Below, in pieces: positions 21,332 through 56,362 of a stretch of DNA of 64,000 nucleotides. Where the stretch lies: assembly GCA_000611775.1 (NCBI GenBank), contig KK106981.1, positions 2,913,211 through 2,977,210 of the forward strand, written 5' to 3'. The notes beneath the pieces were generated by a model. It was given only the letters and a program-made list of their open reading frames with translations, had not been told where the DNA came from and ran no database searches. A program made the position numbers and the translations under genes. This stretch comes from Umbilicaria muhlenbergii (Eukaryota > Ascomycota > Lecanoromycetes > Umbilicariales > Umbilicariaceae). How positions within the stretch are numbered: the stretch's first letter is position 1; each line of letters opens with the position of its first letter.

Positions 21332-24060
21332 TTAACGCAGGGTCTTGAACGCATCACCCTTGCGCTCCGGCGTCATGTCCATCGCGCTTTGTAGTAGCTC
21401 CTGCACGAATGTTTTATCAGCCTCTGGGATCGGCCGTCCACTTGTTCGAAATCTAATTGCTAATGCTGTTGCGCCATCGCTGTTGGTAGCATGGACATAA
21501 GCTCCCGACTTGAGCAGCAACTCTACACTGGATACCGAGCCATTAAATGCCGCATGGTGGAGGGGCTGCCAGTCTCTGGAGCACTCTGAGTCGACCTTGG
21601 CACCCTTGTCGATAAGGAGTCTGGTGATGTCCTCCCGCTCGAATTCAGCCGAGAGGTGCAATGGCCGGCTGCCCGGATGAGGCCATCTGGCTTCTGCCCA
21701 GTACCCGTTTTCCAAGAAGGGAACGGCTTGGGCCTTCTTGTAGGACGTTGACTTTAACTTGTCTTCAATCTTGGCGCCTGACTTGATCAGTAGCTCTACA
21801 AGCTCTGTGTGGCCATAAGCCATGGCGATATGTAGTGGCTGCCATCCAAACTTATTCACCGCCTGCACATTGGCCTCCTTTGAGAGAAGGGCGTTGGTGA
21901 TAGCCGCATAGCCTCCACGGGCGGCCAGGTGTAACGGCTCTTGGCCGTGGATATCCTGGGACCCAACAGGTGTACCCTTCTTGCTTAGAAGGACTTCCGA
22001 AACGGCCAGATGCCCTGCCTTCACAGAAAGATGGAGCGGTGTCTCTTTTTGCGAATTGGCGGCTTTGGCGGAAACTTTCTTTTCTAGTAACCTTTCGACG
22101 ATCTTCTCGTGCCCGTTGTGCGCTGCCAGATGTAAAGCCGTCCACTTATTGCCGTCTTCGCCGTTGACGGGGAACTTATTTCCCAGCAAGAAGTCTAGCA
22201 TCTCAAGATTTCCGCTTTTGGCAGCCCACAGAATAGGCGTCGCTGCGGTCTTCTTCAGAACTTTGGTAGTTGCTCCATTCTCGAAGAACTTCTCTGCCAC
22301 GCCAACATGACCAGCCTCCACGGCGGAATACCACGCTGCGTGGAAATTTGCATCACCGGGATTGAGGGCCGATCGCTCGAGTAAAAGCTCCACGGTGTCA
22401 ACGTGCCCGGCTTCGACGGCTAGTCTTAACGCTGTTCTAGAATTTGCGTCTGTGCTTTCGAGCGGAGCGCCACTGTCGAGGAGCAGAGAACACACCGCGG
22501 TATTCCCTGCACTTGCAGATGCATGTAGAGCAGTCCGTCCGAAGGTGTCTGTTACCCCAAGGTCGGCATGTTTCTGGATCAGTTCTTGGACCATCTCTTC
22601 GGAGCCGTTCAATGCAGCTCTGATGAGTGGAGGATAACCTTCCTTATCCAGGATTCCCTTATCAACTCCTATTCCTTCCGCATCTTGATTTCTTAAATCA
22701 ACTTCTAATCCTTCGAACGCTGCTTCGGAGAGCCTTGGGGTGCTCATGGAAGCTTTCTGGGTCGCCACATTGTCCGATAGAGTTCGTGACGCTAAGCTTG
22801 GCCTCTCCTCAGGAAAGTAGTCCGACATTGGGGTAGATTTGGATGAAATTGCAGGGTTAGCTGAACCATCAGCCACTGTCGAACTCGGTTTTATTCGGGG
22901 CCCTGCGCGCGACAAGAAGGATAAGCTGGCCAATGAGTTCAGGGAGCTAATGGGCCTTCTGCGTTTTTCTTTCGCCACCGGTGGAGTACTTGGTTGCGTT
23001 GAGTCGCTCGAGTTTGACGGTATGGTATCCTGTGCAGTGAGCATGGGGAAACTGTCAGGCTCCATTTGCCCTGAAGTTATCTTCACGTCACCCATCAAAG
23101 TACTGACGAGATCTTCTCTACTGTGTTCCGAATAGTCATTGGTCCCACCCTGGCTCCCTTGTCCTTTGGCAAACTCTCCAAAGGGTGGAGCGGCCAAGTT
23201 GTCCTTTTCTGAACTCAGACCCATTTCCGGACCTGCATTCATGACGTTGTAAGGATCATTGGAGATGCTATAAGGGTCGTTGGCGAAGCCGTATGGGTCG
23301 TCAGAAGTATGGTAAAGATCGTCTGAAATTTTGTAGGGATCGTTGGAAACGCCGTAAGGATCGTTGAAACCATCATATGGGTCGCGGGCTATCTGGTGAG
23401 AATTGACAGAAACGGTGTATGGATCGGTGCAGATGCTATAGGGGTCGGTGGAAACGCTATGGGGGTCGTTGAACTGCTCCTGGTTAATCAATGGAGGGCT
23501 ATAGGCAGGTTGGTTTGCTTTGGCGTAGTCGACACTCGCTTTCTGAAGAACCCTTTTTGAGCTGTCATTCGTTTGCCTATGGAATTTAGTATCGGGCAGC
23601 CGTACTTTGAAAGTGTTTTGTTGTCAAAAGTCTTACCATTGGAGAACAGAGAGCGCAAACTGCACAACAGCGGCCTGCTCTCTGATATCGGCAAGATGTG
23701 CTTTCATGACATCTTCCTTCCACATATGTTTTGTGGTCGCCACCCAGCTAGCGGCCATGCCATCAGAGCCTTCTCCTGCTCCGAGCACTTTTCCGATATC
23801 TTTCTGTAAGGACATCATTGACCCGTTAATGAGGCGAGTGCACGATTGAGGCTATCTCGTTGTTCCTGAACATCGGCAGAGTGTTGCTGCCCAGCAGTAT
23901 CATTCAGCCATTCCTGTATGAATTTCACCCCGCTGTCAAAGATCTTGCATTGCGTTTCGATAGCCGCCAATGTACGACTTGTCTCTTTGTACTTAAGCCG
24001 GATCTCTTTCAGACCCCTAACTACCACACGGACAGTCGCATACACGGTGACAGGGTCCAT
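21332..24060 (-). CDS. Ankyrin-repeat protein with STAND-like N-terminal domain and DPY repeats
   Basis: Proposed exons are 24060-23872, 23803-23637 and 23561-21332, giving 861 residues. The second intron (75 bp, GTAAGA...GACAG) is clear. The first (68 bp) has a strong acceptor (CCTTACAG) but a weak GTTCAG donor; without it the frame breaks near 23820, so this point is uncertain. Residues 1-120 form a helical domain (MDPVTVYATVRVVVRGLKEI, then a Lys/Glu-rich stretch) like the N-terminal domains of fungal STAND proteins. Residues about 150-225 hold a run of NDPYxxS heptads. About twelve ankyrin repeats fill residues 415-840 (for example TALHLAAHNGHEKIVERLLE). No NACHT domain is present. Ankyrin arrays usually bind other proteins, so a signalling or non-self recognition role is inference. 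Confidence 0.8.
23240..23480 (-). repeat. Imperfect 21-bp repeats coding DPY heptads
   Basis: About ten copies of a 21-24 bp unit with core tccttac or tcgtatgg on the plus strand code for N/D-DPY-x-x-S. The core is recurring but diverged. Confidence 0.8.
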
Positions 24061-31499: not shown

Positions 31500-31795
31500 A
31501 CAAGCCCTCTACGGAGGCAGTCACGGAAGCCAGCCCACAGAGGTGGTGTTCTAGTCACGGAAGCCCACAAAGGTGGCCATTCCACTTCAGAAGTCCTCCA
31601 CAGAGAGGCAGTCACGGAAGTCCTTCACAGAGAGGCATCCATGGAAGTCCTCCAGAGAGAGGCATCCACAGAAGTCCTTCACAGAGAGTCGGTCACGGAA
31701 GTCCTCCTCGCAGAGGCATTACAGGCCTACAAGGCACTTATCAGAAGCTCCCAAAGGTGATCATTCCACTTCAGAAGCCCTCCACGCAGAGGCGT
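31500..31795 (+). repeat. Minisatellite-rich spacer, copy 1
   Basis: Imperfect units of about 24-30 bp with cores ggaagtcc, cacagagaggca and ccacaaaggtgg. The same block appears in inverted orientation at about 32731-33015. Confidence 0.85.
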
Positions 31796-32274: not shown

Positions 32275-32540
32275 CCACAGAGAGGCAGTATCGGAAGCCC
32301 ACAAAGGTGGTCATTCCACTTCGGAAGCCCTCCACGCAGAGGCATTTGCCTATAAGGCAGTTATCGGAAGCCCACAAAGGTGGTCATTCCACTTCGGAAG
32401 CCCTCCACGCAGAGGCATTTGTCTATAAGGCAGTTATCGGAAGCCCACAAAGGTGGCCATTCCACTTCAGAAGCCCTTCACGCAGAGGCATTACGGGCCT
32501 ACAAAGCACTTATCGGAAGCCCACAGAGGTGGTCATTCCT
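32275..32540 (+). repeat. Tandem repeat of about 72 bp (cattccacttcggaagccc core)
   Basis: About four tandem units, each with cacaaaggtggtcattcc, a ccctccacgcagaggca block and a taaggcagttatcgg block. Adjacent units are nearly identical. Confidence 0.85.
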
Positions 32541-32730: not shown

Positions 32731-33015
32731 CGCCTCTGCGTGGAGGGCTTCTGAAGTGGAATGATCACCTTTGGGAGCTTCTGATAAGTGCCTTGTAGGC
32801 CTGTAATGCCTCTGCGAGGAGGACTTCCGTGACCGACTCTCTGTGAAGGACTTCTGTGGATGCCTCTCTCTGGAGGACTTCCATGGATGCCTCTCTGTGA
32901 AGGACTTCCGTGACTGCCTCTCTGTGGAGGACTTCTGAAGTGGAATGGCCACCTTTGTGGGCTTCCGTGACTGAAACGTCACCTCTGTGGGCTGGCTTCT
33001 GTTACTGCCTCGGGG
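32731..33015 (-). repeat. Inverted copy of the minisatellite-rich spacer
   Basis: Reverse complement of about 31500-31795. Together with the flanking LTR-like piece it forms a large imperfect palindrome with arms of about 450-500 bp. Confidence 0.85.
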
Positions 33016-33875: not shown

Positions 33876-33938
33876 AGCGGCCAAGCAAGCAACGTCGTGA
33901 TTTTGGTCGTGGTTTTGGTCGTGGTCTTGGTCGTGGTT

Positions 33939-34311
33939 GAACACGCAGTTTAGGGTTTTGTAAGACGCATTGTGGATGCGCATTTTTGGTCTTTTGTGAG
34001 TCGTGTTTTGAACACGCAGTTTAGGGTTTTGTAAGACGCATTGTGGATGCGCATTTTTGGTCTTTTGTGAGTCGTGTTTTGAACACGCAGTTTAGGGTTT
34101 TGTAAGACGCATTGTGGATGCGCATTTTTGGTCTTTTGTGAGTCGTGTTTTGAACACGCAGTTTAGGGTTTTGTAAGACGCATTGTGGATGCGCATTTTT
34201 GGTCTTTTGTGAGTCGTGTTTTGAACACGCAGTTTAGGGTTTTGTAAGACGCATTGTGGATGCGCATTTTTGGTCTTTTGTGAGTCGTGTTTTGAACACG
34301 CAGTTTAGGGA
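33939..34311 (+). repeat. 71-bp tandem array, five full copies
   Basis: Units start gaacacgcag at 33939, 34010, 34081, 34152, 34223 and 34294 (the last is partial). The five full copies look identical. Each contains cagtttagggttttg, including the heptamer TTTAGGG. The array is followed by purine-rich sequence and another TGTTGAA. Confidence 0.95.
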
Positions 34312-51735: not shown

Positions 51736-54700
51736 ATGACGAATCGCATTCTAGCCCATCGCATGCTTATTCAGGACTTCGAGGAGGATCCAGCTTTGCC
51801 CATCGCCAGCGGAATAGGTGGCGCAGAACATCAAGAGGGTTCATCGCCCACTCATCACACAATGGTATCCAAGTTTTCGAAGATTTTGAAGTCTTTTAAG
51901 ACGCGTTTGTCACAGGAAGATATAGACCGCTTCAAGGTTGCGACGTTGCACGACCTTAAGTCTGTCGTCAAAGACATTCAGACTGAGCAGGCTTGTCGGA
52001 AGTCTCTCCGCAACATGGCCAAAATTCGCCCGTACCTAGACGGACTTCAGCAATATGCAGCAGTCATTGAGGTTTTCGTGAATAGCAAACCAGACATACT
52101 AGCATTCATTTGGGTCGGTGGTTTCACATCTACTCTACCATCCAGACAGTGCAACATGAAGCTGATTACTTCATTAGGGACCCATTAAGCTCTGTTTGAA
52201 GGTCTGCAGAGCCCCCTCGGCCAGGCAAACCAGAACTAAGATGCTGTAGATTGCTTCGAATTATTCCGAAGCATTCGACGCTCTCCTTGATGCCTACAAA
52301 CAGATTGGTGATGCGCTTCCGATCTTCTCTGACATCAACGATCTCTTCTCTTCCCATACCAGTGTGCAGCAAGTGTTAATCAACGTCTACGAGGATATTC
52401 TGGATTTTCACGGCCGTGCAGTGAATTTCTTCAAGCAGAGAGGTAATTCGCCCTCCAGCTCAGGGAAACAGCACCCGCATTTGTGAAAGTCAAGCACATT
52501 CTGATATTTGCATTGTGAATGTAGCGTGGAAAATTACTATCAAGCTGGCCTTTCGCACCTTTCGAAGTATGTTTGAAGACGTTTTGGAGAATTTGGAACG
52601 TTCCAAAGGCCTTCTTTATCAATCGGCCGACATAGCTAGCTTTCGTGAGGCTCAAGATTCTCGTTCTCTTTTCAAACAGCAATTCGATGCGCAGGAGAGG
52701 AAGGCAATGGATGACAGAAGATCAACAGCACTTGAATGGCTTTCTCACGAGAGTTGTGATAAGTCTCACGAGGAATTGCAGGAGACACGCAGAAGATTTC
52801 CCAATACCGCCAGGTGGATATTTCATGAGAGGGCATTGAAAGAATGGTTGGGCGGTAGTCGAGTAAGGAATCAACCGTTCTGGATATCTGGCATTCCTGG
52901 TGCAGGTAATAAGGTCTTCAAATTTGCTACTCCGGATTTCAACTAATAGGTCGATCATTAAGGCAAAACTGTCCTGTTCAGCTCCATCGTTGACGAGATT
53001 AGGACCACGTCTCCCAAAGCGGCGGTCGCCTTTTTCTATTGTAAGTACAACAACATTCTGAGAAACAACTATCAGGAAATAGCGAAGAGCCTCATTGCTC
53101 AACTACTCTACAACAACGATGACTGTCTAAGATACTTGTACGAAAGGGCTGTCACGTGTCGAGAGAGACATCCAAGCACGAGAACTGTTCTTGAAGAGCT
53201 CATAGGCACTATGGCCCTATTACACCGCGATCTTTTTATAGGAATTGATGGACTCGATGAATGCGACTCTTCGGAACGACACCTTGTTCTCTCCTTAGTC
53301 CACAACCTACTCAAGCTATCCGATACAGAACTTGATCTCAAAATATTTCTGGCCAGTTGCGCGGAAAAGGACATCGAGGAGTCTTTACAACTATCAACTC
53401 ATCTGGCTTTAAATTCCCACCACTTAGACGGTGATATACGAGGCTACATCGAGATACGCTCGGTAGAACTAGGCAAAAGCTTTTCTTTCAGTGAAGAGCG
53501 AGTGCATGAAGTTACGGCCAAAGTTGCGGACAGACCCGAAGGTCTGTAAAGCCTTTGAGTCTCGTGTGGGAGTTTTTATGTAGATCTAGCTGATGAAGTT
53601 TAGGAATGTTTCTTTTAGCGAGGTTAATTATGGACAACTTGCTCGATCAGGAGACATGGGAGGACATTGATGAAGAGTTGAGAACCGAAGTACTACCCCG
53701 AAGAATTGATGAGGCGTATGTTCGATCTATCTAAAGGAAATCTTCATAAGTCGCTGATTATACCTTCTACTGCTGAAGATACGGACGTATCATACTGCGT
53801 ATCCGAAAGCATGTGAACCTCAGACAGCAAGCTCGGGTAAAGCAGATCTTAGAGATGATTACAGGCGCAAAACGCTCCTTGTGGTTGCACGAGATTCAAG
53901 GAGCTCTGTCAATACGGTTAGATGACAAGAGCATTGACTTGGAAAGTCGTAAGATACGAAGACATCTCAAAGAGATATGCGGACCTATCGTGGAGGTACA
54001 CGATGATGGAAGCGTAGAGTTGATCCATCACACGGCCAAGACGTCTGTATCAGTTCCTGTCTTGGAGCTTGTTCACTGATTTTTCGCTAGCTTCCTCGAG
54101 CAAATCCCTAGCGATCAGTTCATCAACCCCAACATTGCCAATCGAAATATAGTACGTCTTTGTATGAGTTACCTTACCTTCGACTGCATTACCACGGAAC
54201 TCGACTACCTCGAATACCTAAAGAGAGTGAAGATGGGCGAATACGCTTTCCTGGAGTACTCCATTTGTTATTGGCTCCAGCACATGCATTATCTCCATTC
54301 AGTAGAAGAGAGAGATAGCAAAGAGGTAAAAGATCTTCTCGACTTGTCCCTTGAGGTATTGGATCTACACTATGAAACATTGCTTCTTAAAAGCACTCCA
54401 ACGATCAGTCAGGGTATTACGCCCGTTGGTCAAAGTGCTACGTGGGAGCTTCTAGATGGTGTCCAAGAGTCGTTTGAGGCCGCTCATAGTATTGCTGACG
54501 ATGGCGACCAGTTGGGAATACTGAAGCCTAAGGTATACCGTCTACTCTTTCACATCAGGAGTCTTGTCGAAGCCGTAGCCGAAGGTCCGACTGATCTTTC
54601 CATGTCAATAACCGAAGCCTATGGAACGCTAATCTTCAAGTGCCCCATTGTCCGCTGTAAACATTTTCATCGGGGTTTCCGTTCTCGCGCACAACGTGAT

Positions 54701-56230
54701 GGCCACGTCAAAGGCCACGAACGTTCATTTCGATGTCCCAATGAAGGTTGTGATTACCAGGTTCTTGGATTTTCGTCAAAAGCTGCGCGCACCGCACATA
54801 TTTCCTCATACCATAATTCCTCATGCGAAGAATACACGTTCCCGAACGTTGAGCCTCGCTCTATCTGGAAGACCCTTGAGGATGCCATTGACAAGGATGA
54901 CGCGACCGCGGTCCGGGCTCTATGTGAGGAAGTCGCGAGACTTCCTGACAAGAGGTACGGATTTCTTTTACGAGCTGTAGAAAAGAAGTGTCTGAAAGCT
55001 GCTCGTGCTCTTGTAGGAATATTTAGTGGCGATTCAAAAGAGATAAACCACCAGGGCCGAGGCGGACGAAACGCACTGCATGTAGCCGCTGAAGCTGGAG
55101 AACAAGATCTGGTGGCACTCATATCTCGGACATCCGCGGATGTCAATATCACAAATTCACAGCGGATGTCGCCCATCTGCATAGCTGCATCGAACGGACA
55201 TTTAGGGGTTGTGCAGCTTCTCCTCCAGCATGACAAATGTGATATGCGTCTCCGAGGCGGAAGCGGATCCCTACTTACACCACTGCTGTCCGCCGCAGCT
55301 GCTGGTCATCTGGAGATAGTTCGATTTTTACTTGAAGACGATATACAGCAATATGTTGAAGAAGGTCATTTCTTGAAGGCTTTAAAAGCTGCGGCAGCGT
55401 CACGTCATGGTACCATCGTTAGATTCATGTTAGAAAAAGGATCCACCGTCTACGCTCAGAACACATACAGCAAGAGACTTGCGGCGGCAGTGAACGAAGG
55501 AATTGACGTAGCAGTGGACCTGCTGCTGCAAAGACGCACTATGAAGAAGAAAAGAGGAGAATTCGATGAAAAGGGCAGAACATACGGCAATACTCTTCTG
55601 GTTGCAGCTCAGGAAGGAAATGAAGCTGAGATAAAGCGACTACTGGACGGTGGCGCTGATGTCAATGTCACAGGTGGTCACTATGGAAGTGCACTGCAGG
55701 CAGCAGCATTAAATGGACACAAGGATACTGCACAGCTGCTGTTGAATAATGGAGCTGATGTCAATGTCACAGGTGGTCACTATGGAAGTGCACTGCAGGC
55801 AGCAGCATTAAATGGACACAAGGATACTGCACAGCTGCTGTTGAATAATGGAGCTGATGTCAATGTCACAGGTGGTCACTATGGAAGTGCACTGCAGGCA
55901 GCAGCATTAAATGGACACAAGGATACTGCACAGCTGCTGTTGAATAATGGAGCTGATGTCAATGTCACAGGTGGTCACTATGGAAGTGCACTGCAGGCAG
56001 CAGCATTAAATGGACACAAGGATACTGCACAGCTGCTGTTGAATAATGGAGCTGATGTCAATGTCACAGGTGGTCACTATGGAAGTGCACTGCAGGCAGC
56101 AGCATTAAATGAACACATGGATACTGCGCAGCTGTTGTTGAATAACGGAGCTGATGTCAATGTCACAGGTGGTCAATGGGGAAGTGCACTGCAGGCAGCA
56201 GCGCATTATGGATACAAGGACGTGGTATAG
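51736..56230 (+). CDS. NACHT - C2H2 - ankyrin receptor-like protein (fungal NLR type), truncated in the last repeat
   Basis: Eight exons (51736-52113, 52178-52201, 52250-52442, 52525-52905, 52963-53541, 53604-53715, 53779-54042, 54091-56230) give 1,356 residues. Residues 1-230 are a helical N-terminal domain. The NACHT Walker A is GIPGAGKT (about 321-328, across an intron) and Walker B LFIGIDGLDECD (about 418). A winged-helix-like region reads ILEMITGAKRSLWLHEIQGAL. Two C2H2-type units lie near 827-885 (CPIVRCKHF..H..H and CPNEGCDYQ..H..H). Ankyrin repeats run from about 964 to the end, the last six being 33-residue units. The stop is TAG inside unit six, where the pattern wants CAG (VVQLLLDYGAD). 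After it the ankyrin pattern goes on, then shifts frame and ends at 56360 (GFGTALYAAKK to LLEAAI). Such proteins control heterokaryon incompatibility or immunity in other fungi; the ligand is unknown. Confidence 0.88.
52178..52201 (+). other. 24-nt microexon of the NACHT-ankyrin gene
   Basis: Codes GPIKLCLK between introns of 64 and 48 bp. It is in frame and matches the motif FIWGPIKLCL expected at this place in the N-terminal domain. Confidence 0.75.
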
Positions 56231-56248
56231 CTGTTGTTGGATTATGGG
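55655..56248 (+). repeat. 99-bp ankyrin-coding tandem repeat, six units
   Basis: Units start at 55655, 55754, 55853, 55952, 56051 and 56150. The first four appear identical base for base from ADVNVTGGHYG to LLLNNG. Unit five differs at a few bases and unit six more. A seventh, degenerate start (GCTGATGTCCATGCC) is at 56249. Confidence 0.95.
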
Positions 56249-56362
56249 GCTGATGTCCATGCCACCCGGGAGGGGATTTGGCACTGCGCTGTATGCCGCT
56301 AAGAAATCCTCGTCCTCGAACGCACCAGCAGTGATAAAACTTCTGGAGGCAGCAATATGAAA
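56231..56362 (+). pseudogene. Detached 3' end of the NACHT-ankyrin gene
   Basis: Downstream of the TAG the frame continues LLLDYGADVHATREG. One frame over it continues GFGTALYAAKKSS...NAPAVIKLLEAAI and ends with TGA, a normal last ankyrin helix. One stop and one frame change therefore separate it from the translated part. Confidence 0.7.

What the first reader, a model, noticed from the sequence alone, without database searches (positions are those of the whole stretch)
55655..56248. Near-identical ankyrin repeats in an NLR-type gene: a rapidly changing recognition surface
Four consecutive 99-bp units look identical at every base, including silent positions, and the next two diverge progressively. 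Older ankyrin repeats in the same protein share only the fold. In Podospora and other fungi, STAND genes with such high internal repeat conservation are known or suspected to evolve by concerted repeat shuffling and to control non-self recognition. This may be an uncharacterised allorecognition or immune receptor.
Basis: partly seen in the sequence, partly recalled or inferred. Interest (0 to 1): 0.85.

Follow-up and report, generated by a model that had tools for sequence, protein, structure and literature searches.

The report
Fungal immune-type receptor with copied ankyrins
A fungal immune-type receptor gene ends in a row of freshly copied, identical ankyrin repeats, a pattern already known in fungi, and in this assembly a stop codon cuts the last repeat short.

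Summary
The repeat observation is real. Window 55655-56111 is exactly periodic at 99 bp (457 bp; 358 comparisons, no mismatch). Units 1-4 are identical; unit 5 differs at 5 of 99 bases, unit 6 at 22 of 99. They end an eight-exon gene (sequence-based model, 51736-56230) coding DUF7708, NACHT (NPHP3_N, P-loop GIPGAGKT), winged helix, two C2H2-like fingers, older ankyrins and copied ankyrins. This is a fungal NLR with "high internal conservation" ankyrins, a class described in 2014 (PMC4986451): a new member of a known kind. Two longer arrays of the same unit type lie beside NACHT frames elsewhere in the genome. This array shows no sign of diversifying selection (low power); strain variation and allorecognition could not be tested. 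Most worth following: a double C2H2 module, not recognised by Pfam, shared by three DUF7708-NACHT genes with different C-terminal ends.

The parts
51736..56230 (+). NLR gene model, eight exons: 51736-52113, 52178-52201, 52250-52442, 52525-52905, 52963-53541, 53604-53715, 53779-54042, 54091-56230; 1356 codons plus stop
   Evidence: Introns placed by hand at GT...AG sites, 48-82 nt; no transcript evidence; start codon not proven
52045..52643 (+). DUF7708 domain (aa 104-238, spans introns)
   Evidence: Pfam PF24809 E=6.5e-17
52803..53357 (+). NACHT-type NTPase (NPHP3_N, aa 292-457, spans an intron), P-loop GIPGAGKT
   Evidence: PF24883 E=3.5e-33; plain NACHT model 24.1 bits, below its cut-off of 26.7
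53834..54100 (+). Winged helix (GPIID_WHD, aa 575-647, spans an intron)
   Evidence: PF22939 28.5 bits, cut-off 27
54626..54817 (+). Double C2H2-like module, C-x4-C-x15-H-x3-H and C-x4-C-x15-H-x4-H
   Evidence: All eight Cys/His columns invariant in 3 of 3 sequences; places; no Pfam model over its cut-off
55070..55672 (+). Older, diverged ankyrin repeats (start approximate)
   Evidence: Pfam ankyrin stretches; last one 59% identical in DNA to unit 1
55655..56111 (+). Exactly periodic stretch, period 99
55673..56068 (+). Ankyrin units 1-4, identical in DNA
56069..56167 (+). Ankyrin unit 5, 5 of 99 bases different from unit 1
56168..56266 (+). Ankyrin unit 6, 22 of 99 bases different from unit 1, carries the stop
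56228..56230 (+). In-frame TAG that ends the open frame
56271..56360 (+). Homologue of the L009 C-terminal ankyrin cap, in another frame than the array
   Evidence: 15 of 35 aligned positions identical to the L009 cap, E=5e-5 for the single comparison

Best explanation
This is a fungal NLR (STAND) receptor gene whose ankyrin sensor end has recently been lengthened by tandem copying of one 99-bp repeat, by unequal crossing-over or replication slippage, so that one sequence now fills 4.6 units. By analogy with fungal NLRs the ankyrin surface would bind a ligand, the NACHT module would bind nucleotide and oligomerise, and the DUF7708 end would pass on a cell-death or defence signal. Shown here: open frame and domains of the model, recent homogenisation, and arrays of the same unit type beside other NACHT frames of the genome. 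Inferred: recombination as the cause, the sensor role and the immune role. Not shown: allorecognition. In this assembly the product is cut short inside unit 6, so this copy may be impaired.
For: Domains; exact periodicity; unit comparison. Other arrays: L009, 19.7 x 99 bp at 99%, 1834 bp exactly periodic, NACHT in the adjacent frame on the same strand; L010, 9.5 x at 95%, likewise; L024, 8.6 x at 93% of another ankyrin unit, in a frame with a winged helix beside a NACHT match. Of 26 distinct ankyrin places held, five have at least four units at 91% or more; one of the five, L025, is a kinase-ankyrin protein. Published: 10% of ankyrin domains of fungal NLRs show this conservation, and Podospora ankyrin NLRs vary in repeat number and show positive selection, mostly on the concave face (PMC4986451, passages).
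Against: The frame stops in unit 6 and a cap homologue lies out of frame behind it. No diversifying signal in this array. No second strain. No SNARE, HET or other known partner among the ten neighbouring frames scanned. A single-sequence AlphaFold2 model (mean pLDDT 70.9, pTM 0.47) pairs the helices along the array but leaves the last helix (443-455) unpaired; ten-residue pLDDT means are 68-93 in the array and 72, 70 and 64 in the last three blocks. The NPHP3_N model is not specific: it also rings in 9 of 14 prokaryote control genomes, over its cut-off in 5.
Confidence: 0.75

Rival explanations
1. The gene is a decaying receptor: the stop in unit 6 and the frame change behind it have removed the C-terminal cap, so the product is unstable or inactive, and the array is a relic of an earlier active phase.
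For: TAG at 56228; cap homologue in another frame; the paralogue L009 keeps its cap in frame; the model's last helix is unpaired. Podospora het-d also has a strain with stops in a repeat, thought to disrupt the protein (PMC12222747, passage).
Against: The 1356 codons before the stop are open across seven introns. A splice that avoids the stop can be drawn: of 25 GT/AG pairs of 40-160 nt around it, 11 end in the cap's last residues, the nearest being 56222 or 56225 to 56303, 82 or 79 nt; nothing supports their use.
Confidence: 0.35
2. The copy number is wrong in this assembly: the array was collapsed or expanded by the assembler.
For: Identical 99-bp units are hard for short reads; no reads are available; the sequencing method is unknown; none of the 14 contig ends (150 bases each) carries TTAGGG or CCCTAA; L009 holds a run of 260 N outside its array, a gap or a withheld stretch.
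Against: Only 7 contigs; no N in the window; a far longer exact array (1834 bp) is resolved elsewhere; units 5 and 6 differ in a graded way, which a simple duplication error does not give.
Confidence: 0.12
3. The gene is an NLR-like protein with a role other than non-self recognition, for instance in secretion or development.
For: A NACHT protein of Penicillium herquei is reported as required for unconventional secretion (PMC13311144, listing and start of abstract only). Most fungal NLRs are not allorecognition genes (PMC12881547, passage).
Against: High-internal-conservation repeats are enriched in fungal NLRs and tied to non-self recognition in Podospora (PMC4986451, passages); NACHT-ankyrin genes lie at incompatibility loci of Aspergillus and Botrytis (PMC11138114, passages).
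Confidence: 0.2

Closest known systems
Podospora anserina ankyrin NLRs with high internal conservation, e.g. Pa_3_8560 (PNP_UDP/NACHT/ANK), PMC4986451 (passages)
   Same: NACHT plus tandem near-identical ankyrins at the C-terminus
   Different: N-terminal domain here is DUF7708; no strain data here; stop in the last unit
HNWD receptors het-d, het-e, het-r (PMC12222747, PMC4986451, passages)
   Same: NOD plus repeats of over 80 to 100% identity (their figure), a sensor changed by recombination
   Different: They have a HET domain and WD40 repeats; this gene has neither
Aspergillus fumigatus hetE candidate and Botrytis cinerea Bcvic1 (NACHT plus ankyrin; PMC11138114, passages)
   Same: NACHT plus ankyrin architecture
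   Different: Those have genetic evidence for incompatibility; Bcvic1 is paired with a SNARE gene, and none was found among the ten neighbouring frames here
PDB 6ne1 chain B, deposited as 'Pfs, NACHT and Ankyrin domain protein'
   Same: Ankyrin array similar over residues 249-422 of the 462-residue query, E=2.5e-33
   Different: A 192-residue ankyrin chain on its own; many designed ankyrins score as well or better
Paralogues in the same genome: L009 array (C2:1815460-1817410) and L010 array (C2:5172547-5173485)
   Same: Same kind of unit, GGxYGxALQAA...LLLxxGADVNxx, beside a NACHT frame
   Different: Longer arrays; no DUF7708 match there; L009 has an in-frame cap; 68-72% DNA identity to this array over the main matches

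Membership tests
Fungal NLR/STAND receptor | NACHT or NB-ARC module with P-loop | tested here: met
   NPHP3_N E=3.5e-33, GIPGAGKT; the plain NACHT model stays below its cut-off (24.1 of 26.7 bits)
Fungal NLR/STAND receptor | C-terminal superstructure-forming repeats | tested here: met
   Ank_2 E=1.4e-68
Fungal NLR/STAND receptor | N-terminal effector domain | tested here: inconclusive
   DUF7708 E=6.5e-17, function unknown; 'DUF7708' occurs in no paper of the held library
High-internal-conservation NLR (PMC4986451) | repeats over 85% identical over at least 100 aa | tested here: met
   Five units, 165 aa, mean pairwise identity 97.6%; with unit 6, 85.9%
High-internal-conservation NLR (PMC4986451) | repeat number polymorphism between strains | not testable with these tools
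   One assembly only; no relatives held
High-internal-conservation NLR (PMC4986451) | positive selection at contact positions | tested here: inconclusive
   Window pN/pS 0.53 at seven contact-type positions, 0.63 elsewhere, three distinct units. L009 0.47 and 0.79, L024 0.82 and 0.69, L010 3.34 and 0.64
HNWD family | HET domain and WD40 repeats | tested here: not met
   Neither is in the 18 families listed at E up to 1
Allorecognition (het) gene | allelic incompatibility phenotype | not testable with these tools
   Needs genetics
Intact receptor gene | open frame through the C-terminal cap | tested here: not met
   TAG at 56228 and cap homologue in another frame; alternative splicing not excluded

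The most novel reading that the evidence does not exclude
The gene belongs to a DUF7708-NACHT receptor line with a conserved double C2H2 module between the NACHT part and the C-terminus, whose end has been swapped: copied ankyrins here, WD40 repeats at C1:8050140, and a Med15-like stretch without repeats (in the frame scanned) at C1:242875. Pfam does not recognise the module, and the survey passage I read found C2H2 fingers in 34 Sordariales NLRs but only treble-clef fingers beside canonical repeats (PMC12258605). The module could be a fixed adaptor, or a second sensor that binds metal, nucleic acid or protein.
Probability: 0.35. Interest if true: 0.45.

Novelty: new member of a known kind. 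Interest (0 to 1): 0.27.

Why it matters
It adds one more receptor to the published class of fungal NLRs whose repeat ends are kept near-identical by recombination, in a genome that holds several such arrays of about 5 to 20 units. Such genes are good places to measure how fast a receptor end changes length. The double C2H2 module may matter more: if it is a fixed part of some fungal receptors, domain surveys that rest on Pfam miss it.

Tried and rejected
Diversifying selection in this array: not seen, with only three distinct units. The seven contact positions (2, 3, 5, 13, 14, 26, 33) are those randomised in designed ankyrin libraries, recalled and not taken from a call. L010 alone points the other way (3.34 against 0.64). 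A permutation test of amino-acid variation, run on L010 only and after seeing that ratio, gave p=0.016; treat it as post hoc.

RIP as the cause of the stop: not tested directly. The array's dinucleotide indices (TpA/ApT 0.51; (CpA+TpG)/(ApC+GpT) 1.92; whole window 0.75 and 1.23) do not look like RIP by the usual thresholds, which I recall.

An adjacent recognition partner (SNARE, HET, patatin): none in the ten neighbouring frames scanned; four gave matches (SNF2/RING, PAN-like, two APH kinase pieces) and six gave none at E up to 0.01.

Telomeres as a sign of whole chromosomes: no TTAGGG or CCCTAA in 150 bases at any of 14 contig ends.

Recent exchange of repeats between genes: the main matches in the L009 and L010 arrays are 68-72% identical to this one (one short 33-base match is 91%), so none is seen.

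Solved relatives of the NACHT part: best E=0.13.

The count of five arrays in 26 places uses the places cut out for the best array and ankyrin matches (30 of 179 Ank_2 matches), so it leans towards strong ankyrins and is not a genome frequency. The Ank_2 model rings in 5 of 14 control genomes.

Full report
Observation. The array is real and as described. Tandem Repeats Finder reports 55651-56265 as 6.2 copies of 99 bp. The exactly periodic stretch is 55655-56111, 457 bp. Units 1-4 are identical at all bases; unit 5 differs at 5 of 99 and unit 6 at 22 of 99. At the protein level units 5 and 6 are 93.9 and 63.6% identical to unit 1. The unit, GGHYGSALQAAALNGHKDTAQLLLNNGADVNVT, is a 33-residue ankyrin repeat.

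Gene. Joining eight exons at seven GT...AG introns of 48-82 nt gives one open frame of 1356 codons from 51736 to a TAG at 56228-56230. Pfam finds DUF7708 (aa 104-238), NPHP3_N/NACHT (292-457), a winged helix (575-647) and ankyrins. Between the winged helix and the ankyrins lie two C2H2-like fingers that no Pfam model reports over its cut-off. The model rests on sequence alone; there is no transcript.

The end of the gene. The TAG lies inside unit 6, the most diverged of the six. Behind it, in another frame, is GFGTALYAAKKSSSSNAPAVIKLLEAAI followed by a stop. It matches the in-frame C-terminal cap of paralogue L009 (15 of 35 aligned positions, E=5e-5 for the single comparison). The gene has probably lost its cap through a stop and a frame change. 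Splicing around the stop cannot be excluded: of 25 GT/AG pairs of 40-160 nt tried in a script, 11 end in the cap's last residues, and those nearest the stop (56222 or 56225 to 56303) are 82 or 79 nt long, within the range of the gene's own introns. No data support them, and the cap's match to L009 runs through the part they would remove. A single-sequence AlphaFold2 model (mean pLDDT 70.9, pTM 0.47) shows helix pairs along the array and a lone last helix.

Genome context. The genome is 34.8 Mb in 7 contigs, unnamed, with no relatives held. It has 64 NPHP3_N-matching stretches, some of them pieces of one gene; the same model also rings in 9 of 14 prokaryote controls. Two other arrays of the same kind of unit lie beside a NACHT frame on the same strand: L009 with 19.7 copies (99% matches, 17 units identical in protein sequence) and L010 with 9.5 copies (95%). 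I made no full gene models for these two. L024 has 8.6 copies at 93% of another ankyrin unit, in a frame with a winged helix beside a NACHT match. Of 26 distinct ankyrin places held, five have at least four units at 91% or more; one of these, L025, is a kinase-ankyrin protein. That sample leans towards strong ankyrins.

Selection. In the window array pN/pS is 0.53 at seven contact-type positions and 0.63 elsewhere, from three distinct units. L009 gives 0.47 and 0.79, and L024 0.82 and 0.69. Only L010 points towards diversification: 3.34 against 0.64, with variation concentrated at those positions (post hoc permutation p=0.016). The contact positions are recalled from designed ankyrins, and pairwise counts are not independent, so this is a hint about a paralogue, not a result for the gene in question.

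The double C2H2 module. A search with the region from the NACHT end to the first ankyrins found two further genes, at 30-31% identity. One (C1:8050140, minus strand) continues into WD40 repeats. In the other (C1:242875, minus strand) the frame has a Med15-like match and no repeats. All eight Cys/His positions are invariant in the three, and searches with the other two modules found these three places only. All three genes have a DUF7708 match upstream of the NACHT match, and 8 of 8 DUF7708 matches in the genome lie within 0.8 kb of an NPHP3_N match on the same strand. DUF7708 rings in none of the 14 controls. PMC12258605 reports 34 C2H2-bearing NLRs in Sordariales, but says that the 16 zinc fingers next to canonical repeats were all of the treble-clef type (passage). 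PMC9815663 has no occurrence of 'zinc' or 'C2H2' in its main text. My searches (listings) show no paper whose title or opening lines describe this arrangement; the library holds open papers only, and I did not open the other papers listed.

Known or new. Near-identical ankyrins in fungal NLRs, their repeat number polymorphism and positive selection, mostly on the concave face, are published (PMC4986451, passages). Stops in such repeats are published for het-d (PMC12222747, passage). NACHT-ankyrin genes at incompatibility loci are published (PMC11138114, passages), with the warning that most fungal NLRs are not allorecognition genes (PMC12881547, passage). The finding is therefore a new member of a known kind, apparently truncated in this assembly. 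Open questions are strain variation, transcription past the stop, and the role of the C2H2 module.

Noticed in passing
window 33930-34310: A 71-bp unit repeated 5.4 times at 99% identity (sequence read); no gene was assigned to it in the calls made here.
   Followed up: no
window 31590-31718, 32283-32539 and 32805-32935: Tandem repeats of 27, 73 and 27 bp close to the 71-bp array.
   Followed up: no
window 21332-23623 (-): 763-codon frame with many diverged ankyrins and an N-terminal run of NDPY-like repeats; only ankyrin models match it at E up to 0.001.
   Followed up: partly
L009 3461-5411 (C2:1815460-1817410): Ankyrin array of 19.7 units at 99%, 1834 bp exactly periodic, beside a NACHT frame and with an in-frame cap: a stronger example than the window gene.
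   Followed up: partly
L025 1-2925 (-) (C3:2063650-2066574): Protein kinase followed by a 4.7-unit, 91% identical ankyrin array: high internal conservation outside NLRs.
   Followed up: partly
L095 and L096 (C1:242875 and C1:8050140): DUF7708-NACHT genes that share the double C2H2 module but end in a Med15-like stretch or WD40 repeats.
   Followed up: partly
L010 3548-4486 (C2:5172547-5173485): Variation between ankyrin units leans towards contact-type positions (post hoc permutation p=0.016), a possible case of diversification.
   Followed up: partly
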